Assembly: GCA_027082955.1 (NCBI GenBank)
Contig: JALWTA010000015.1
Coordinates: 1 to 45,013, forward strand
Source: Sulfurovum sp.
GTDB taxonomy: Bacteria; Campylobacterota; Campylobacteria; Campylobacterales; Sulfurovaceae
Length of the DNA: 45,013 nt
Direction of reading: 5' to 3'
A program made the translations under genes and the position numbers. The notes beneath the pieces are model-generated. The model was not told the origin of the DNA and did no database searches. It saw only the letters and a list, made by a program, of their open reading frames with translations. Numbering within the stretch: the stretch's first letter is position 1; each line of letters starts with the position of its first letter. This document shows positions 35,307 through 45,013 of the stretch, one piece after another.

Positions 35307-38300
35307 TTACCCCTCCACTGCAAGCATCTCCTCTTTGTAAACCCCCAGTGCCTTTGCCTCTTCGAGGATCTGCTCACTCACTTTGTATTTGCTCTCGATG
35401 ATCACATCGGCAAGTTTGGACTTGATATGCAGCTCCAAAGGACGCTTTCCCGGATGGCGTTCGACCAGACACATCAGCTCTTCAACCGTTTTGGCATCTG
35501 GCATCAGGTTGAGTGCCAAGATGAGCGGCGGCTGCTCGGGCTCTGGGGTGTGTTTTTCTTCTTTTTTGACCTTGACCTTCTCTTTTTTGGCATCTTTGAG
35601 TGACTCGATCTTGAGGATGTTCATACGGGTAAAGTCCCCATCTTTGGTGATCTTGACCTTGAAAGCGATCGGCTTGGTCATATCAAAATCCTCTTCAAGC
35701 TCCTTAAGACGGTTTTCAAAGAGCATCAGCTCGATGTTGCCGTGCAGGTCCATGATGTTGGCGATGCCAAATTTGTTGCCCTTTTTGGAGATCTTCTCCG
35801 TGATATTCTCAATCTTGCCTATGATCAGCGCCTGTGAACCGTCAGCCAGATCGTCTATCTCAGAGCTTAGCGTATAGTTAATACTCTCAAGCGTCTCACG
35901 GTACTTGTCAAGCGGATGCCCGGAGACATAAAAGCCCAGCGACTCCTTCTCCATCTCGAGTATCTCCATAGGCTCATACTCTTCCATCTCTTTGAGCTCC
36001 AGTTTTACCTGTGTCATTTCCGCATCATCGCCCCAGAGCGAACCGAGTGCCTGTTTCTTGGCATCTCCCGCTTTCTTGGCTGTTTCGATGATCTTCTCAA
36101 TTTGCATGAGCATCGCTTTGCGGCTGTAGCCGAAGCTATCCAGCGCCCCTGCTTTGATGAGAGACTCGATGACCTTTTTGTTCACCTTGGTCGAATCGAT
36201 TCGCGAAACAAAATCCGAGAAGTTTTCAAACGGTGCCTTGGCCCGTGCTTCAAGGATGGAATTGATCGCGATATCCCCTGCTCCTTTGATTGCTCCCATA
36301 CCAAACATGACAACCTCGTCACCGTCGATATTGGTCGCTTCAAAGACGAGCCCTGAGCGGTTGATATCCGGCGGGAGGAGTTTGATGCCCATGCGTTTGA
36401 GCTCATCGACATACTTAACCACTTTGTCGGTATTGTTCTTCTCCAGTGTCAAGATCGCCGCCATGAACTCTGTGGGGTAGTAGTACTTCAGATAAGAAGT
36501 ATAGAAAGTAACCATCGCATAGGCTGCTGAGTGGGATTTGTTGAAGCCGTATCCGGCGAACTTCACGATCAGGTCGAAGAGCTCTTCTGCTTTGGCACGG
36601 TCAAACCCTTTTTTCTGCGCCCCATCGGCAAACTCTCCTTTGAGCCTGTCCATCTCCTCCTTGATCTTCTTACCCATCGCACGACGCACCAAGTCCGCCC
36701 CACCAAGGCTGAAGCCACCGATGGTCTGTACGATCTGCATAACCTGCTCCTGATAGACGATAACCCCGTAGGTCGGTTTGAGGATCGGCTCAAGCTCAGG
36801 GAACATATAGGTAATCTCCGCGCGCCCATGCTTACGCTCGACGAAGTCATCGAGCATCCCAGACTCCATAGGCCCCGGACGATAGAGTGCGAGCATCGCG
36901 ATGATATCTTCAAACCCAGAGGGCTTGAGCTTCTTTGCCAGATCCTGCATCCCGGCTGATTCGATCTGGAAGAGTCCGAGTGTCTCACCTGTTGAGATAT
37001 ACTCATAGACCTTGGGATCTTCGATATTCTCTTCAACGAAGTTGATCCGCTTGCCGTGACGTTTTTCGACCAGCTGTAGCGCCTCTTCAATGACGGTCAG
37101 GGTCTTAAGCCCAAGGAAGTCGAACTTAATGAGATCGACATCCTCGACATACTTCCCGCTGTACTGCGTCGCGAGCGTATCAAGCCCTGTGGGTTTAAAA
37201 AGCGGTGTTTTTTGCCAAAGCGGTTCGTTGGAGATCACCACCCCCGCCGCGTGCGTACCGGCATTTCGGTTGAGCCCTTCAAGTGCCAGCGCAAACTCCC
37301 ACACCCGTTTTGCCTGCGGGTCACGCTCCAGCAGTTCTTTGATCTTGGGCTCTTTTTCGTACGAGCTTTTGAGGTCAATCCCCAGTTCATCGGGAATGAG
37401 CTTCGCCATCGCATCGGCTTTGGCGTAAGGCATATCAAGTACCCGTGCAACATCACGGATGACCCCTTTGGCAAGCAACTTACCAAAGGTAATGATCTGC
37501 GCGACGTTCACACGCCCATACTTCTCGACCACATAGTCGATGATCTCCTGACGGCGTGCCTGACAGAAGTCCATATCGATATCGGGCATACTAACACGCT
37601 CAGGGTTGAGAAACCGTTCAAAAAGCAGTCCGTAAGGCATCGGGTCAATGTCAGTGATCTTGAGCGAATAGGCTACCAGCGATCCCGCCGCCGAACCACG
37701 TCCGGGACCTACAGGGATACCCATATCCTTGGCTGCCTTGACAAAGTCCCAGACGATAAGCATATAGCCGGGGAACTTCATGCTGTTGATGATATCAATC
37801 TCCACCTGAAGCCTGTCACGATACTCCTGATGTTTTGCTTCAGGCACGATCTTCAGACGCTCCTGAAGCCCTTTGCGCGCTTCGACAATAAAGAGTGCTT
37901 TGTCATTCTCGAGTGAATACTCTTCGTCGGGTTCCGGTAGCTCCAGCCCAATGTCCGCCGCACGCTGCCTTGCGAACTTGAAGTTTGGCGGTGTAGGGTT
38001 ACCCAGTTTGATCTCAAGGTTACACTTGTCGGCAATCTCCTGCGTTGCTTCGATCGCTTCGGGGATGTCGGCAAAAAGTTTTGCCATCTCTTCAGGTGAT
38101 TTGACATAAAACTCATGCACCGAGTGACGCAGACGGTTGGGGTCGTCATAGAGTTTGTTCATCGCGATACACATAAACGCCTCATGTGCATCGGCATCTT
38201 CGGGGTTGGTGTAGTGGGTGTCATTGGTTGCAACCACTTTGATGCCCGTCTCTTGACTCAGCTGCAATATCTGCTTGTCGATACGGTGCTGATCGCCGAT

Positions 38301-38864
38301 ACCATGCCGCATGATCTCAAGGTAAAAGTCATCCCCAAAGACCTCTTTGTACTTGAGTGCTACCCGTTTGGCTTCCTCGTATCCCTTGGCGCCAAACTTG
38401 ACATTACGCTCAGAGAGGTTCAGATGCCAGTTCACCTCGCCTTGCAGACATGCCGAAGAGCACACCAGCCCCTCTGCATGATCCTTGAGCAGATCCCAGT
38501 TGATACGAGGATAGTAGTAAAACCCCTCAATGTAGGCTTTGGAGGAGAGAAACATAAGGTTTTTGTACCCCGTCTCATTCTTGGCATAGAGACAAAGGTG
38601 AAACCGCTGACGCACCGACTTGTCGCCGAGTTCTGGCTGGTTATGCACATAGGCTTCCATCCCGATGATGGGTTTGATCCCCTCTTTGCGCATGGTGTTG
38701 TAGAAGTCGATGGTACCGAACATATTGCCATGATCGGTCATCGCCACCGAGGTCATCCCCAGCTCCTTGACCTTCTTGGCAAGCGCCTTGATCTTGTTGG
38801 CACCGTCAAGCAGCGAGTACTCGGTGTGGAGGTGGAGGTGGGTAAATTGGGGCTTATCAGACAT
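35307..38864 (-). CDS. dnaE: DNA polymerase III alpha subunit
   Basis: DnaE is the replicative polymerase. From ATG 38864 the product has 1185 residues; an 11-residue upstream extension lacks a ribosome site. The N-terminal PHP domain starts FTHLHLHTEYSLLDGA. The polymerase active site has PDIDMDFCQARR near residue 430, and GPGRGSAAGSLVAY precedes it. The C-terminal part has the helix-hairpin-helix and OB-fold region (ALIIGKIENI). It begins 26 bp after the toxin-like gene on the same strand, so the three genes may share a transcript. Confidence 0.97.
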   Translation of the reverse strand: MSDKPQFTHLHLHTEYSLLDGANKIKALAKKVKELGMTSVAMTDHGNMFGTIDFYNTMRKEGIKPIIGMEAYVHNQPELGDKSVRQRFHLCLYAKNETGYKNLMFLSSKAYIEGFYYYPRINWDLLKDHAEGLVCSSACLQGEVNWHLNLSERNVKFGAKGYEEAKRVALKYKEVFGDDFYLEIMRHGIGDQHRIDKQILQLSQETGIKVVATNDTHYTNPEDADAHEAFMCIAMNKLYDDPNRLRHSVHEFYVKSPEEMAKLFADIPEAIEATQEIADKCNLEIKLGNPTPPNFKFARQRAADIGLELPEPDEEYSLENDKALFIVEARKGLQERLKIVPEAKHQEYRDRLQVEIDIINSMKFPGYMLIVWDFVKAAKDMGIPVGPGRGSAAGSLVAYSLKITDIDPMPYGLLFERFLNPERVSMPDIDMDFCQARRQEIIDYVVEKYGRVNVAQIITFGKLLAKGVIRDVARVLDMPYAKADAMAKLIPDELGIDLKSSYEKEPKIKELLERDPQAKRVWEFALALEGLNRNAGTHAAGVVISNEPLWQKTPLFKPTGLDTLATQYSGKYVEDVDLIKFDFLGLKTLTVIEEALQLVEKRHGKRINFVEENIEDPKVYEYISTGETLGLFQIESAGMQDLAKKLKPSGFEDIIAMLALYRPGPMESGMLDDFVERKHGRAEITYMFPELEPILKPTYGVIVYQEQVMQIVQTIGGFSLGGADLVRRAMGKKIKEEMDRLKGEFADGAQKKGFDRAKAEELFDLIVKFAGYGFNKSHSAAYAMVTFYTSYLKYYYPTEFMAAILTLEKNNTDKVVKYVDELKRMGIKLLPPDINRSGLVFEATNIDGDEVVMFGMGAIKGAGDIAINSILEARAKAPFENFSDFVSRIDSTKVNKKVIESLIKAGALDSFGYSRKAMLMQIEKIIETAKKAGDAKKQALGSLWGDDAEMTQVKLELKEMEEYEPMEILEMEKESLGFYVSGHPLDKYRETLESINYTLSSEIDDLADGSQALIIGKIENITEKISKKGNKFGIANIMDLHGNIELMLFENRLKELEEDFDMTKPIAFKVKITKDGDFTRMNILKIESLKDAKKEKVKVKKEEKHTPEPEQPPLILALNLMPDAKTVEELMCLVERHPGKRPLELHIKSKLADVIIESKYKVSEQILEEAKALGVYKEEMLAVEG

Positions 38865-38890
38865 TTGAGAACCTTTTTGAAAATCTTTTT

Positions 38891-39175
38891 CTAACAATCT
38901 TTGGTGAGACGATCATATTTTTGATGATCCATGATATCTTGGAAATAGGCAATATCACCACGCATACTTATCAAAATACGAAATCCGTCATCGCCGAGTA
39001 CACGTATTGATCTTTTATGCTTATCTCTTCTGCACACAATCTTTTTGAGTGCAAGCTTTGGGTGGTGCGGGTCAGATTGAAACAGCATTTCTGTCTCTTC
39101 GATTTTATGCACACTTATACGTTTGGCAACTTTCTTTTTGCTGCGTTCGTATTTGGCATCAAATTCAACTTGCAT
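38891..39175 (-). CDS. RelE/ParE-superfamily toxin-like protein
   Basis: The 94-residue basic protein has a C-terminal pattern like RelE-type mRNA interferases: HHPKLALKKI, then SIRVLGDDGFRILISM, then IAYFQDIMDHQKYDRL. These correspond to the spaced HP-L-K, R-V...FRI and D-H..YDR elements of that fold. The N-terminus is not typical. It overlaps the preceding gene by 11 bp, as toxins often do with their antitoxins. The resemblance is by eye only; a small unrelated protein is possible. Confidence 0.5.
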   Translation of the reverse strand: MQVEFDAKYERSKKKVAKRISVHKIEETEMLFQSDPHHPKLALKKIVCRRDKHKRSIRVLGDDGFRILISMRGDIAYFQDIMDHQKYDRLTKDC

Positions 39176-39527
39176 GACGATGCTCTAAGATAAGATCACC
39201 GATTTCCATATCTAGTTTAGCCATTTCGGTCAATAAGGAGTCGATCATAACCCGCGTAGACTCGTCACTTGTCTTTTCAAATATCTTTTCAACCACGTCA
39301 TAGTTATCATCCAGCGCAAACTGCAATGCTCTGAGTTTTTCTTCATTGTAGTTGAGATCATCTAAGATATCACGAAAACCGCTGACCATCATCAAAGCGA
39401 TCTTTATGGCATCTTTTATTTCATCGAGAGAGGCTGCATCGTGTCTCTTTTCATACTCATTAAGAGGAAGCACTATAGTCTGCTGCATATACTCAGCATC
39501 CAACACGGGAATGTACGGCACACTCAT
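39165..39527 (-). CDS. Putative antitoxin partner of the RelE-like protein
   Basis: This is an acidic, helical protein of 120 residues with a strong AGAGGAG site five bases before ATG. TIVLPLNEYEKRHDA near residues 17-31 resembles the IVLPxxEYE start of several type II antitoxins. No ribbon-helix-helix or helix-turn-helix is obvious. The 11-bp overlap with the next gene and the acidic/basic pairing suggest a toxin-antitoxin operon. It has no other recognised family. Confidence 0.45.
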   Translation of the reverse strand: MSVPYIPVLDAEYMQQTIVLPLNEYEKRHDAASLDEIKDAIKIALMMVSGFRDILDDLNYNEEKLRALQFALDDNYDVVEKIFEKTSDESTRVMIDSLLTEMAKLDMEIGDLILEHRHAS

Positions 39528-39645
39528 TTTGTCTCCTCTTTTGATGGTTTCTTGCTATTATAACATAAGTTTGTCACCTGCCGCTCAGATGTACGACACG
39601 TGCCTTGCAGTACTATATTTGACTACTCATTCTTTTAGGCAAAAA

Positions 39646-39695
39646 GCTTTTCGCAAGAAAAGCATACCGACACTCTTCACTCTTCGTTCTTCACT
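39646..39695. repeat. Dispersed element copy 2: hairpin plus ACTCTTC heptamers
   Basis: The same structure as at 1245-1305: GCTTTTC (39646-39652), loop GCAA, GAAAAGC (39657-39663), ATACCGAC, then ACTCTTC twice and GTTCTTC. Loop bases differ (GCAA here, ATGA in copy 1) while the stem is kept. It lies in the 238-bp gap downstream of hsdR, which shows no gene. Confidence 0.75.
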
Positions 39696-39765
39696 GTGGC
39701 AAAGCCACTATGTTTCTAATTTTACTTGAATATAGCAAAGCAAAGATGAAAAGAGGTTGAAAAAT

Positions 39766-42700
39766 TTATAACGTTCCACCCACCTCTTTAAACTTCTCCA
39801 CAAACGCCGCTATCTTCTCAAATACACTCTGCTTCTTTGTCAAATACTGCGGATTGAGCGGGCTCATTTTGGGGAGTATCTCATTGAGTTCGGTGCCGTT
39901 TTCGCTGGCGTATTGGCGTTTGAGAGATCGGAGGATGTAGCGTTTGGCTGCCTCTTTGTTGAGTTGCTCCTCTTCGATGAGTGCTTCTGCCTCTTGACGC
40001 TGCTTCTCCTGTGCAAAAGTAAAGAAGGCATCGATGATCCCAGCTTTGTCATCGATCGTGTCAAGATCGGTTTCGTTGATGAAGTCTACGATAAGGCTCT
40101 CTTTGGCACGATGCCCAAGGCTGGCACGAATCATACGGCGCACTTCGTCGATCAAAGCTTCTTTATCTTTTTTCTTTCTATTCTGTTCAAAAATAAGCTC
40201 AAGGATATAGTCGAGGTTGATCTCCTGCGATTTGAGCAAATCTACCTCAAAGACCACATCGTTCCAGTCGATGCTAGATGCCTCTTGCTCTTTGCCCTCT
40301 CTTTCTCTGCGTATCCATTCGCGGATGTCGTTGTAGGTCGAGCGGTAGTCTTGCTCCACTCGTGGAGGCAGCACCTCGATCTGTCGCAGTTTCTCAACTT
40401 CTTCATCACTAAGGTAGTGCTCCGCTTTGAAACGCTCCATCGCCTCAGCATCTTCAGTGTCGATGCTTTGTAAATCCCGCAACGCTTCGAACTCATCATA
40501 GTTTTGCAAGATATTTTCGAGTCTCAGATACTCACCGAAGAGTTTGACAAACGCTTTTTTATCGCTCTCTCTTTCGATCGCCGCAGGATCAGGGAACCGC
40601 TCTTTGAGCTCGGCGACCACCTCCAAGTATCCAAGCCGTGCCTCTCCACTCTCCTGATCTTCAAATCCACCCATATACTCCTCATAACTCTTCTCGAGCA
40701 CTACATTAGCGGTGTTTTTGTCGCCAAAGAGGGTGATAGCATCAATCGTCGCCTTCTCCAGATCGCGGAAGGTGACGATATTTCCGAAGGTCTTGGTAGC
40801 GTCATAGATGCGGTTGGTACGCGAATACGCCTGTATCAGCCCATGGTAGCGGAGGTTTTTGTCCACAAAGAGGGTGTTGAGCCTCGGTGCATCAAAGCCT
40901 GTGAGGAACATCCCCACCACGATGAGCAGGTCGATCTCGCCCTCTTTGACCCGCTTGGAGATGTCGCGGTAGTAGTTTTGAAACGCCTTGCTATCGACAG
41001 CGTAGTTGGTCTTGAACATCGCGTTGTAGTCGTCGATGGCTGCCGAGAGGAACTCTTTGGCACTGCTGTTCATCGCCGAGACTTCAAAGCTCTCATCGGG
41101 TATCTCACCAATGGCATCTTGTGCTTCATTGGGAGCGAAAGAGAAGATCGTAGCGACCTTAAGCGGTCTCTCCCTCCCTTTCTGTAGCTCTCTGAACGCT
41201 TCGTAGTAGCGTTTGGCGGCATCGACACTGCTAACGGCAAACATCGCGTTAAACCCTTTGGCACCTGCCTGCAGGCGATGTGTCTTTTGCGGATAGTGTG
41301 TCAAGATATACTGCGTGATCTCCCGGATACGCTCGGGGTGAAGGAGGGCTTCTTTGGTCTCTAAGCTACTAAGCTTCTTCTCATCGAGCTCCCTCTCCAT
41401 CGCCTGAAACTTCGGGCGTACATCGTTGTAGTCCACTTTGAACTTGAGCACCTTCTCATCCCGGATCGCATCGGTAATGACATAGCTGTGCAGCTGTCGC
41501 CCAAAGACACTCGCCGTCGTCTCAGCCCCGAGTGCATTCTCAGGAAAGATCGGCGTACCGGTAAAGCCAAATTGGTAATACTTCTTAAACTTCTTTTTAA
41601 GGTTCTTCTGTGCCTCGCCAAACTGAGAGCGGTGTGCCTCATCGAAGATAAAGACCACCTGTTTATCGTAGATCTCAAGGTCACTCTCACTCTTCATCAG
41701 GTTGTTGAGCTTCTGAATGGTGGTAACGATGATCCTGTTGTCCTCTTTGGCGATGTTGCGTTTGAGTCCTGCGGTGCTCTCCGAGCCGTTCACACTCTCA
41801 GGCGAAAAACGCTGATACTCTTTCATCGTCTGATAATCAAGGTCTTTTCTATCCACAACAAAAAAGACTTTGTCGATAAATTCAAGCTCTGTTGCCAGTC
41901 GTGCCGCCTTGAAGCTCGTGAGCGTCTTGCCCGATCCGGTAGTGTGCCAGATGTAGCCGCCACTCTCGGGTCGGCTCCACTTTTTGGACTCAAAAGAGCT
42001 TTTGATCTTCCACAAAATACGCTCCGTCGCAGCGATCTGATAGGGACGCATAATCAGCAGTGTATCGTTCACATCAAAAACACTATATTTACTCAACACC
42101 TCCAGCAAAGTACGCTTCTGAAAGAAGGTAGCCGTAAAGCCTTCGAGGTCTTTGATACGTGTATTGTCGGCTAACGCCCAGTTCATCGTAAAATCAAAGC
42201 TGTTTTTCTCCCGCTTTACAGTATTGGCGAAGTAGCGGGTATCGGTACCGTTGGAGATGACAAAGATCTGAATATACTTAAAGAGTGAACTCTCGGCGTT
42301 AAAGCTCTCTTTGGAGTAGCGGTGTACCTGATTGAACGCCTCTTTGATCGCCACACCTCGCTTCTTGAGCTCCACATGCACCAGCGGTAGACCATTGACG
42401 AGGATCGTCACATCGTAGCGGTTGGCATGCGTACCCGTCTGCTCAAACTGCCGGATCACCTGTACACGGTTTCGGGCGATGTTTTTCTTGTCCAGCAGGT
42501 AGATATTTTGGATATGCCCATCATCAAAGACAAAGTCGTAGATGTAGTCATCGTGTATCTTACGGGTCTTCTCGACGATACTATCGCCCGGCTTGTCGAG
42601 ATACTCCTCCACAAACCGCTGCCACTCACCATCGCTAAAGGTCACACTGTTAAGAGATTGCAACTGCTCACGCAGATTGGAGAGCAGTTGCTCAGGGCTC

Positions 42701-42867
42701 TTGATGTCAGGACGATAGTCATACCCCTGAGCTTGCAGATCGCGCACCAGCTCCCGCTCGAGGTTCTCCTCACTCTGATACGACTCATTGACCCGATCGG
42801 GCTGTTTATAGCGATCGAGGATGATGAAGTTTTTGGACTCGGCGATGGGTTTGTTATATTCAAGCAT
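39766..42867 (-). CDS. hsdR: Type I restriction enzyme HsdR subunit
   Basis: HsdR translocates and cuts foreign DNA as part of the R2M2S complex. The 1033-residue protein is full length. It has an N-terminal PD-(D/E)xK nuclease with HVELKKRG near residue 165, Walker A HTTGSGKT near 308, the DEAH box IFDEAHRSQ near 405, and helicase motif VI-like [14 protein letters not shown]-terminal helical region follows. It starts at ATG with GAGGGGG upstream. It is separated from hsdS by two small genes and a 138-bp gap that may hold its own promoter. Confidence 0.96.
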
Positions 42868-42900
42868 AGAAGACCCCCTCTAAATACTTATATCTTTTTG

Positions 42901-42949
42901 ATGGTAGTTTAAGGTATATTTTGGGATAATAGCACCGCTCAACTACCAT
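42901..42949. promoter_or_regulatory. 9-bp inverted repeat around a candidate hsdR promoter
   Basis: ATGGTAGTT (42901-42909) and AACTACCAT (42941-42949) are perfect inverted copies. Between them lies a minus-strand -10-like TATTAT (42926-42931) facing hsdR, 58 bp from its start. It could be a paired operator or a transcript hairpin. Confidence 0.4.
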
Positions 42950-43005
42950 TGAGTAGTCAGAGGTGACCGCCAATCGTCCGGTCCACAATAGGCGATCCAA
43001 TCTTT

Positions 43006-43554
43006 CTAAAACCATTCACATCCCCTTAAATCAGCATTTGTTTTCCCAATATAAGCTTTATAATACTTTTGAAAATCATCTCTTTTTCTTTGGTGGGTAA
43101 TATAAAAACTTGTCACCAAAAAAGAACTGCTTTTGCCAAGTTTTTGCAATATAACCACAAAATCCTCATCTTCTACCCACAAATATAGTCTTATCGGCTT
43201 TTTACCCTTTGTCTCTTTTCTGTAGAAAAGTTTTACATTTTGTGCTATCGAAGCATTATCGATAATGGGCTTAATCCAATGGATGCGTTTTGCACGGTCA
43301 AAATCCAGAAGCCGCTCTTTGTTCGCTACGATACGATTACCCTCTTTTTTGTAATGGGTTTGTGTCCGCGTAGTCAAGTGCCAAAAGCTAAGCTCTTTGC
43401 CATCCTCTTTTTTATGGCTCTGCGGATCAATGCGTATGGTGTCGTTTAAAAAAGTTTTATTGGCTATAAAGTCATCATAAAATATATCATACAACACATC
43501 AAAAAATTTTACAGCATCAATGCTGTCTAAATCTAGCGGAGCCTCAAGCATCAT
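43006..43554 (-). CDS. Possible phage-type barnase/RelE-like nuclease in the RM locus
   Basis: ATG 43554 overlaps the stop of the DUF3800 gene as ATGA, with GGAG six bases upstream, so it is preferred over an ATG 12 bases earlier. The product has about 182 residues. The C-terminal half has AKRIHWIKPIID, then IRLYLWVEDEDFVVILQKLG, then SFLVTSFYITHQRKRDDFQKYY. This is a strand pattern with conserved basic and Trp positions like the barnase/EndoU/colicin-type nuclease domains found on phages (PBECR families). The match is from memory and tentative. The N-terminal half is unrecognised. Confidence 0.5.
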   Translation of the reverse strand: MMLEAPLDLDSIDAVKFFDVLYDIFYDDFIANKTFLNDTIRIDPQSHKKEDGKELSFWHLTTRTQTHYKKEGNRIVANKERLLDFDRAKRIHWIKPIIDNASIAQNVKLFYRKETKGKKPIRLYLWVEDEDFVVILQKLGKSSSFLVTSFYITHQRKRDDFQKYYKAYIGKTNADLRGCEWF

Positions 43555-44243
43555 TGCAAACTCCATCTAAATATGTTAAATTTCCTCTCCCACGGTTTTG
43601 TTTGCTTAATAGAACAATAAGAGTCGCACGAGGCTCTGATTTTAGCATCGAGATATTCAACAATTCTATTTTTAATGGCACTCTCTTTAGGTATATCGGC
43701 TCTATTTGCATATCCTATCGCACCCACAAAGAGATCGCAAAGCTGAATCAATTGCGATTCGTGCGAATGAATAATTGTAAACTCGCTTTGTTCATACCCT
43801 TTTTTTGATAAAATCTCTTTGAGCTTTTTAACCCTCTCTCCCCCTAAAGTATCTTTATAGTCAAAGTAAATCTTAAAATTATTTTCAACATCCATCATAT
43901 CCCTAAGCGTATAGTAGTAAACCACATAATAAAACTCGTTATGGTCTCTGTCATACCGTTCATGCCGTGCGTTTGTCTTGTTCATAACCAAAGTAGCTTT
44001 AAATTCCATATTCTCATTTTCAAAAAAATAATCGATTAGCTCCTTATAAAAATCCCACTGTTTTGCAATGAGTTTTGTCCATTTTATCTCTGTATGATAG
44101 TTGTATTTATGGCGAAGGTATTTGATATGTTTCTTTGCCTGCAAAAGATACGCTTCGTCTATCTTTAAAGCACCGTTTACCATAATATCCGAAGTATCAT
44201 GAAGCATATAGTTGCTCTCATCGCAAAATATTTTATACACCAT
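43551..44243 (-). CDS. DUF3800-domain protein
   Basis: The 230-residue product begins MVYKIFCDESNYM, the typical (F/I)xDES start of DUF3800 proteins. It has a central WTKLIAKQWDFYKELIDYF and an acidic DYKDTLGG, and ends with the conserved QLIQLCDLFVGAIGYA. The scattered Asp/Glu residues suggest a metal-dependent nuclease-like site, but function is not established. ATG 44243 is seven bases after AGGAG and lies inside the hsdS 3' end. The next gene starts in its stop codon. Confidence 0.75.
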   Translation of the reverse strand: MVYKIFCDESNYMLHDTSDIMVNGALKIDEAYLLQAKKHIKYLRHKYNYHTEIKWTKLIAKQWDFYKELIDYFFENENMEFKATLVMNKTNARHERYDRDHNEFYYVVYYYTLRDMMDVENNFKIYFDYKDTLGGERVKKLKEILSKKGYEQSEFTIIHSHESQLIQLCDLFVGAIGYANRADIPKESAIKNRIVEYLDAKIRASCDSYCSIKQTKPWERKFNIFRWSLQ

Positions 44244-45012
44244 CACTTATCTCCTTTGGAAAATCGAGTAACAGATCACGATAATACTCGTATTGCTTCT
44301 GCCGTAACTCTATCTCTTTTGGTAGACCCTCGGAGATAGAGTTGGTTAGAGTGTCAAACTTATCGAGGATAGCGACAATCTCTTTTTGTTTTTCGAGAGG
44401 TGGGATGGGGATTAATATTTTTCTTAAATTATCGTTATATAATCGTTTAATTGTACCACCTTCAGCAGCATTCCAATTTACAATTTGGTAAAAATAAAAC
44501 AAATATTTATTAAGAACTATACTTTCATCATTTTCTATCCAAACTATATTACTATCTTGAAAATAAGCATCTTCTCCATCAAAAATAACTGCTCTTCCAA
44601 TAGTTCCACTTGCTGATATTAATATCTCACCTTTTTTGGGATAACTATATTTTTCTTTATACTCGTCAAAAAGCTCTCTTGAAATATAAGCATTTGCCTT
44701 TTTGCCAAATGTTCCTATTTTATAGAATGGTATATCACCAACTTCAGAGGTTTGATTTTTCAAAATTCGTTTACACATTCTTACTTCGCCAACTTCCCCC
44801 AACTTCTTCCACTCCACCTCATCCTCACCAAAGCTAAGCAGTCGGTCGCGGTAGTAGCTGTATTGCTTGCGGCGTGCTGTAAGCTCTGCTGTAAGCTCTG
44901 CTGTAAGCTCTGCTGTAAGCTCTGTGAAATTGTCCAGTATCCGGACAATTTCACGCTGCACCTCTATAGGTGGGATGGGGATTTGGATCTTATTTAAGAT
45001 GGTTTGCGTCAA
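44233..45012 (-). CDS. hsdS: Type I restriction specificity subunit HsdS (5' end cut off)
   Basis: HsdS gives a type I system its DNA target. Only the central and C-terminal part is in the window; the frame stays open to the right edge, so the first target-recognition domain is missing. Visible in order are the end of the first half (IPIPPIEVQREIVRILDNF), the spacer helix with TAEL repeats, RRKQYSYYRDRLLSF, the second recognition domain (about 175 residues), and the second conserved helix (IPIPPLEKQKEIVAILDKFD ... YEYYRDLLLDF). hsdM presumably lies beyond the right edge. Confidence 0.93.
   Translation of the reverse strand: MTQTILNKIQIPIPPIEVQREIVRILDNFTELTAELTAELTAELTARRKQYSYYRDRLLSFGEDEVEWKKLGEVGEVRMCKRILKNQTSEVGDIPFYKIGTFGKKANAYISRELFDEYKEKYSYPKKGEILISASGTIGRAVIFDGEDAYFQDSNIVWIENDESIVLNKYLFYFYQIVNWNAAEGGTIKRLYNDNLRKILIPIPPLEKQKEIVAILDKFDTLTNSISEGLPKEIELRQKQYEYYRDLLLDFPKEISDGV
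44876..44923. repeat. Four 12-bp units encoding the HsdS TAEL spacer
   Basis: GCTGTAAGCTCT occurs four times in perfect tandem and encodes TELTAELTAELTAELTA on the minus strand. A 12-bp unit keeps the frame when copy number changes. In the EcoR124 family the number of TAEL repeats sets the gap length of the recognised sequence. Confidence 0.95.
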
Positions 45013-45013
45013 G

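What the first reader, a model, noticed from the sequence alone, without database searches (positions are those of the whole stretch)
43006..44246. DUF3800 plus nuclease-like pair embedded between hsdS and hsdR
hsdS, the DUF3800 gene and the possible barnase/RelE-like gene overlap one another (11 bp, then ATGA), so all three are translationally coupled. hsdR follows after a gap with its own candidate promoter. An inserted coupled pair of this kind inside a type I locus looks like a second defence layer or an addiction module guarding the system. I do not know a described system with this composition.
Basis: partly seen in the sequence, partly recalled or inferred. Interest (0 to 1): 0.66.

Follow-up and report, generated by a model that had tools for sequence, protein, structure and literature searches.

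The report
Two-nuclease cargo module in restriction loci
The two small overlapping genes inside this restriction system are a real, widely shared pair (the same pair as phage P1 rlfA-rlfB) that looks like an RNase H2-type enzyme plus a toxin-type RNase riding as cargo in restriction-modification loci; it is already catalogued as an untested defence candidate, but nobody has shown what it does.

Summary
On the minus strand hsdS, a DUF3800 gene (A), a second gene (B) and, 138 bp on, hsdR follow one another with the stated overlaps; the claimed hsdR promoter is not above chance. The interpretation partly holds. The composition is known: A and B match the two components of PADLOC candidate PDC-M04 (E 6.5e-74 and 9.5e-60), and the pair is homologous to phage P1 rlfA-rlfB. 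New here, as far as I could check: B has no Pfam family, but its confident model is a RelE/HigB/colicin D-type (BECR) RNase fold. A is RNase HII-like with an invariant D-E-D-D set. B follows A in every intact locus seen except one phage. In Campylobacterota 17 of 20 informative pairs sit inside restriction-modification loci of four architectures (type I, BcgI-like, type IIG, type III), and the tree forces repeated moves between them. In orthologous type I loci the same hsdS-hsdR slot holds other genes or nothing. Elsewhere the pair stands alone on phages and plasmids, so it is autonomous defence-type cargo, not specific to hsd. Best mechanism: a B-RNase toxin/effector controlled by A, an abortive-infection or toxin-antitoxin-like layer. 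No activity has been tested.

The parts
43551..44246 (-). Gene A: DUF3800 / PDC-M04A / RlfA homologue, 231 aa (230 from ATG at 44243). Predicted RNase HII-like nuclease; D9, E10, D129, D171 invariant
   Evidence: Pfam PF12686 E 5e-13; PDLC04353 E 6.5e-74; P1 RlfA 37% identity E 5e-43; model pLDDT 94, RNase HII/H2 Z 12.8; residues invariant in 35 of 35
43006..43566 (-). Gene B: PDC-M04B / RlfB homologue, 186 aa (182 aa from ATG at 43554, ATGA overlap with A). Predicted BECR (RelE/HigB/colicin D/BrnT-type) ribonuclease; H63 and R91 invariant
   Evidence: No Pfam or NCBIfam family; PDLC04360 E 9.5e-60; P1 RlfB 27% identity E 1e-6; model pLDDT 90; nearly all of the top 23 structural rows are toxin RNases/RelE-ParE folds, Z up to 5.6; H63 and R91 in 34 of 34
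44233..45012 (-). hsdS, 3' part (second target-recognition domain plus TAEL repeats); interrupted by an assembly gap just beyond the window
   Evidence: Methylase_S E 1e-44; translation; N-run
42868..43005 (-). 138-bp gap between B and hsdR; no above-chance promoter
39766..42867 (-). hsdR, EcoR124-like type I restriction subunit, 1033 aa
   Evidence: HSDR_N E 5e-50, EcoR124_C E 1e-70; TIGR00348

Best explanation
The pair is one autonomous, mobile two-gene module (PDC-M04 = RlfAB family) that has been dropped into a cargo slot of an ordinary EcoR124-like type I locus. Shown: both genes are homologous to PDC-M04A/B and P1 RlfA/RlfB; they travel as a coupled pair; they hop between restriction-modification loci of several types and also live alone on phages and plasmids; A is predicted to fold like RNase HII with an intact acidic site; B is predicted to fold like RelE/colicin D-type RNases with an invariant histidine and arginine. 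Inferred: B is a toxic ribonuclease that cuts RNA of the infected cell; A, made first and translationally coupled, holds or licenses B and may sense nucleic acid (for example RNA-DNA hybrids or invading replication intermediates) through its RNase H2-like site. The module would thus act as a toxin-antitoxin or abortive-infection-type second layer beside restriction, expressed with hsdS from the hsd operon. Likelihood of the module and cargo part about 0.9; of B being the toxic RNase effector under A's control about 0.5.
For: PADLOC hits; P1/P7 homologues in the same order. B directly follows A in all intact loci except Bbif-1: 48 of 53 A genes, with three of the five misses at contig edges and L076 recovered. 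Nearest in-frame B start within -20 to +10 bp of A's stop in 49 of 62 pairs, 22 of them at -1. All intact B hits in 397 genomes have A beside them. Where the module decays, both genes are broken together (L021/G123, L121/G162), and the only A seen without an intact B is Bbif-1. Structures. Invariant sites. 17 of 20 informative Campylobacterota pairs inside restriction loci of four architectures. Tree: own pair is sister to a pair beside an MmeI-type enzyme (support 99/84) and the type I label needs at least 7 changes. Slot swap in orthologous loci. Low GC of the cassette (A 0.345, B 0.360 against hsdM 0.490, hsdR 0.495). Precedent: DarTG2 between hsdS and hsdR in E. coli (PMC12255303).
Against: No toxicity, neutralisation or phage-protection data exist that I could find. 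Structural match of B is modest (Z 5.6, Foldseek E above 0.05), so the fold is supported but a specific target is not. A's catalytic set is fully conserved, which is more than a mere antitoxin would need. Neither protein had a significant match to a DNA-binding domain in Pfam, unlike many type II antitoxins. In P1 the pair is under C1 control next to repL, which suggests expression in lytic growth rather than in the lysogen.
Confidence: 0.5

Rival explanations
1. A and B form one two-nuclease complex in which both active sites act on invading nucleic acid (A on RNA-DNA hybrids or primers, B on RNA); neither is an antitoxin and neither is toxic alone.
For: Near-absolute co-occurrence and translational coupling; A's D-E-D-D set invariant in 35 of 35 and B's H63/R91 in 34 of 34; DUF3800 proteins accompany Cas12a2 and type VI-F loci and are proposed nucleases there (PMC10910872, PMC12669027).
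Against: BECR RNases are mostly toxins controlled by a partner (general knowledge); no complex was modelled (structure jobs spent).
Confidence: 0.25
2. The pair serves phage or plasmid replication (the old reading of rlf as a lytic replication function), and the copies in restriction loci are stray mobile cargo.
For: P1 pair lies next to repL/oriL under a C1 operator; RNase HII-like A could remove primers.
Against: P1 rlfA and rlfB are dispensable for plaque formation (EOP 1.3 and 0.88, PMC10695390) and are replaced by other genes in P1-like plasmids (PMC6906374); repeated independent placement in restriction loci without any replicon.
Confidence: 0.1
3. An addiction or guard module specific to the host restriction system: it kills cells that lose or have inhibited the hsd enzyme.
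For: Position between hsdS and hsdR, coupled to hsdS; frequent embedding in restriction loci.
Against: Same family stands alone on phages, prophages, plasmids and beside tRNA/tmRNA genes and moves among unrelated enzyme types; orthologous hsd loci do without it.
Confidence: 0.1
4. Passive hitch-hiker with no function in the present cell, kept only because it lies in the operon.
For: Some copies are broken (L021, L121).
Against: Intact in most genomes, with active-site residues invariant across very divergent members.
Confidence: 0.05

Closest known systems
PDC-M04 (PADLOC-DB v2.0.0 phage defence candidate, from guilt-by-embedding)
   Same: Both components match with E 6.5e-74 and 9.5e-60, adjacent and embedded in a defence locus
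   Different: Nothing tested differs; the candidate has no known mechanism, and no paper in the library names it
Phage P1 rlfA-rlfB and P7 rapA-rapB
   Same: Homologous proteins in the same order with overlapping or adjacent genes
   Different: P1 copy lies beside repL/oriL under a C1 operator; this copy lies in a chromosomal hsd operon without a replicon
[quoted passage not shown]
   Same: Two-gene toxin-antitoxin defence module in the same slot of a type I locus
   Different: DarTG is an ADP-ribosyltransferase/glycohydrolase pair (general knowledge), a different composition; the island there has the RptR repressor, not sought here
rlo and mlo genes of Campylobacter jejuni hsd loci (PMC5183652, PMC2928727)
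   Same: [quoted passage not shown] here A-B and the AlbA_2 gene
   Different: rloA/rloB sequences were not compared here
DUF3800 nucleases of Cas12a2 and type VI-F loci (PMC10910872, PMC12669027)
   Same: DUF3800, RNase H fold, accessory to an immune system
   Different: There fused to TPR or beside CRISPR effectors, no BECR partner described in the passages read

Membership tests
PDC-M04 | M04A component (DUF3800 subfamily) | tested here: met
   PDLC04353, E 6.5e-74 over residues 2-230
PDC-M04 | M04B component adjacent to M04A | tested here: met
   PDLC04360, E 9.5e-60 full length, directly downstream
PDC-M04 | Antiviral activity | not testable with these tools
   needs phage plating; described only as an unvalidated candidate class
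P1 RlfAB | Both proteins homologous, same order | tested here: met
   tblastn E 5e-43 (A) and 1e-6 (B)
P1 RlfAB | Linked to repL/oriL under phage repressor | tested here: not met
   neighbours here are hsdS and hsdR; so homologous module, not the P1 lytic unit
BECR (RelE/HigB/colicin D/BrnT) ribonuclease fold | Fold | tested here: met
   nearly all of the top 23 VIA rows are RelE/HigB/colicin D/BrnT/CDI toxins, Z 5.6 falling to 2.8, first clearly unrelated row 2.6; Foldseek alone weak
BECR (RelE/HigB/colicin D/BrnT) ribonuclease fold | Residue-by-residue match of the active site | tested here: inconclusive
   H63, R91 and T/S152 invariant but no coordinates were available to superpose
RNase HII / RNase H2 fold | Fold | tested here: met
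   14 Foldseek matches under 1e-3, all RNase H2; Z 12.8 over 163 residues
RNase HII / RNase H2 fold | Acidic D-E-D-D site | tested here: met
   D9, E10, D129, D171 in 35 of 35 rows; correspondence to RNase HII motifs from general knowledge, not superposed
RNase HII / RNase H2 fold | Cleavage of RNA in RNA-DNA hybrids | not testable with these tools
   biochemistry needed
Type II toxin-antitoxin module | Two small coupled genes, one with a toxin RNase fold | tested here: met
Type II toxin-antitoxin module | Antitoxin with DNA-binding/autoregulatory domain | tested here: not met
   A is a single RNase H-like domain with no significant DNA-binding domain in Pfam; so 'works like', not 'is a' classical type II module
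Type II toxin-antitoxin module | Toxicity and neutralisation | not testable with these tools
   expression experiment needed
Type I restriction-modification locus (EcoR124-like) | HsdR, HsdS and HsdM present | tested here: met
DUF3800 RNA-associated genes | A DUF3800 non-coding RNA nearby | tested here: not met
   no such Rfam match in the window hsd region (38000-45013) or in 21 related loci

The most novel reading that the evidence does not exclude
A two-RNase immune module in which an RNase H2-like protein senses or processes RNA-DNA hybrids of the invader (or those arising when restriction fails) and thereby switches on a partner BECR ribonuclease; a mobile companion used with type I, IIG, BcgI-like and type III restriction systems and carried by phage P1 against rivals.
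Probability: 0.15. Interest if true: 0.75.

Novelty: new member of a known kind. Interest (0 to 1): 0.5.

Why it matters
It ties an unexplained pair of classic phage P1 genes (rlfA-rlfB) to an untested defence candidate (PDC-M04), gives both proteins a fold and candidate catalytic residues, and shows that the pair moves among several kinds of restriction systems. That makes the old P1 annotation, 'possibly associated with lytic replication', directly testable with simple expression and plating assays in laboratory E. coli.

Tried and rejected
Peptide-pattern scans with B alone found one relative in the genome collection and none in the viral collection; alignments were needed. DUF3800 non-coding RNA hypothesis: no Rfam match in the window hsd region or 21 related loci. 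No solved-structure match by sequence for A or B. Pfam on 34 B homologues gives only scattered chance matches. PBECR4 (PF18813) as a sequence relative could not be tested: one sub-threshold match in 200 genomes. BFVD fold search of B gave one strong match, an uncharacterised 210-aa siphovirus protein. hsdR promoter claim rejected as chance. P1-like records with a split or shortened A and intact B were not used as evidence because several may be sequencing errors and P1 represses the pair.

Full report
OBSERVATION. The minus strand carries, in order, hsdS (ends 44233), A (DUF3800, 44246 or 44243 to 43551), B (43566 or 43554 to 43006) and, after 138 bp, hsdR (42867-39766). The stated overlaps (11 bp; ATGA) are exact for the ATG starts at 44243 and 43554. 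hsdM lies at C15:47224-48816, outside the window, with an SLFN_AlbA_2/HATPase gene between hsdM and hsdS. The promoter claimed for hsdR is not supported: no site in the gap, and 8 sites in the region against 5.9 +/- 2.6 in shuffles. hsdS is split by a 100-N assembly gap at its TAEL repeats.

IDENTITY. A passes the Pfam DUF3800 cut-off. B has no Pfam or NCBIfam match, and 34 homologues give only scattered chance matches. PADLOC models identify A as PDC-M04A and B as PDC-M04B over nearly full length. PDC systems come from the 'guilt-by-embedding' approach of Payne et al. and are described as unvalidated (PMC12988326; PMC10855318); no paper in the library names PDC-M04. Against named phages the pair matches P1 rlfA-rlfB and P7 rapA-rapB in the same order. 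P1 rlfA/rlfB are annotated only as 'possibly associated with lytic replication', are dispensable for plaques by CRISPRi (PMC10695390), and are replaced by other genes in some P1-like plasmids (PMC6906374). P1-type copies occur in 121 of 5,426 complete E. coli genomes, 123 of 127 places on plasmids.

PAIRING. In 53 distinct A genes, 48 have B directly downstream; three misses are contig edges, one (L076) was recovered, and one (Bifidobacterium phage Bbif-1) has a broken B. Every intact B found with a B profile in 397 Campylobacterota genomes has A beside it. Of 62 pairs, 49 have a B start codon within -20 to +10 bp of A's stop, 22 at exactly -1. In G123 and G162 both genes are broken together.

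FOLDS. A: AlphaFold2 pLDDT 94. All 14 Foldseek matches under 1e-3 are type 2 RNases H; VIA Z 12.8 over 163 residues, Argonaute PIWI domains lower at about 8. D9, E10, D129 and D171 are invariant in 35 of 35 homologues; the adjacent D-E pair is the type 2 RNase H arrangement (general knowledge). This agrees with the published RNase H-fold assignment of DUF3800 (PMC10910872, PMC12669027). B: pLDDT 90. Foldseek alone is weak, but nearly all of the top 23 VIA rows are RelE/HigB/BrnT/colicin D/CDI-type toxins (Z 5.6 to 2.8), which stand above the first clearly unrelated row (2.6). H63 and R91 are invariant, and T152 is T or S, in all 34 rows.

CONTEXT. Two samples of Campylobacterota gave 22 intact pairs; 20 have informative flanks. 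Eight lie in type I loci in the order S-(other)-A-B-(other)-R; six lie directly after a methylase with an HSDR_N domain and before an S-like gene (BcgI-like; the label is mine); two follow type IIG enzymes (MmeI type; Eco57I/TaqI type); one lies between mod and res of a type III system; one lies beside an hsdM; two are unlinked. So 17 of 20 are inside or directly behind restriction-modification genes. In viral and plasmid collections the pair is mostly stand-alone: beside integrases, prophage lysins, tmRNA, a plasmid recombinase, and in a Gastranaerophilales genome beside a tRNA, with a few type I cases (L063, L064, L069). A maximum-likelihood tree of A shows that pairs of different restriction contexts intermix; the type I label needs at least 7 changes forced by well supported branches, and this window's pair is sister to the one beside the MmeI-type enzyme. 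The module has therefore entered restriction loci repeatedly.

THE SLOT. HsdR orthologues with about 50-76% identity have different contents between hsdS and hsdR: AAA_13 ATPase (G143, G135, G104; Pfam shown for G143 and G104, G135 by similar sequence), a RelA/SpoT-like protein (G123, C40), and nothing, with hsdS running into hsdR (G145); a more distant one (48%) has a Fic protein (G035). Neighbours of the pair in other type I loci include Fic, FRG, HTH-IrrE and DUF2971 proteins. Everything between hsdM and hsdR here is low in GC (AlbA_2 0.396, hsdS 0.37-0.39, A 0.345, B 0.360) against hsdM 0.490 and hsdR 0.495. Published precedents are the rlo and mlo genes of C. jejuni hsd loci (PMC5183652, PMC2928727) and DarTG2 between hsdS and hsdR in E. 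coli (PMC12255303).

MECHANISM. The best-supported reading is a mobile two-gene defence-type module: B an RNase effector, A an RNase H2-like partner that controls or licenses it, expressed with hsdS. Gene order, obligate pairing, joint decay, the toxin-type fold and the company kept in the slot speak for it. Full conservation of A's acidic site warns that A is probably an enzyme and not just an antitoxin, so a two-nuclease complex is the main rival. A hsd-specific addiction role is disfavoured by the stand-alone copies and the changes of host system. None of this has been tested by experiment.

VERDICT. Real, conserved and well defined, but its composition is already catalogued (PDC-M04) and known from P1 (RlfAB). 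What is added is the link between the two, a fold for B, candidate catalytic residues, and the breadth of restriction contexts. I did not find these stated in the papers searched, but the key preprint (Payne et al. 2024) is not held and could contain some of them.

Noticed in passing
C15:45747-47219 of the own genome (L016:1748-3220), beyond the window: An SLFN_AlbA_2 plus HATPase_c_4 gene sits between hsdM and hsdS, a second embedded gene of low GC; a relative has the same place in G104.
   Followed up: partly
window 44860-45013 and C15:45014-45113: hsdS carries TAEL repeats like EcoR124, and the assembly breaks there with 100 N; the two flanks repeat the same sequence, so the repeat number, and with it the spacing of the two recognition domains, is unknown.
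   Followed up: partly
window 38891-39527: Two small overlapping genes (120 aa and 94 aa, the latter weakly RelE/ParE-like) between dnaE and hsdR look like another toxin-antitoxin pair.
   Followed up: no
L021 (G123) and L121 (G162): In these genomes both A and B are broken together, as expected if an unpaired B is not tolerated, or simply joint decay.
   Followed up: partly
L048:1-1566 and L002:9255-10759: Stand-alone copies lie directly beside a tmRNA end and a tRNA gene, typical integration sites of mobile elements.
   Followed up: no
G000:C20:26437-29349: A second type I HsdR (37% identical) in the same genome, with its own N6 methylase nearby (C20:32514-33464).
   Followed up: no
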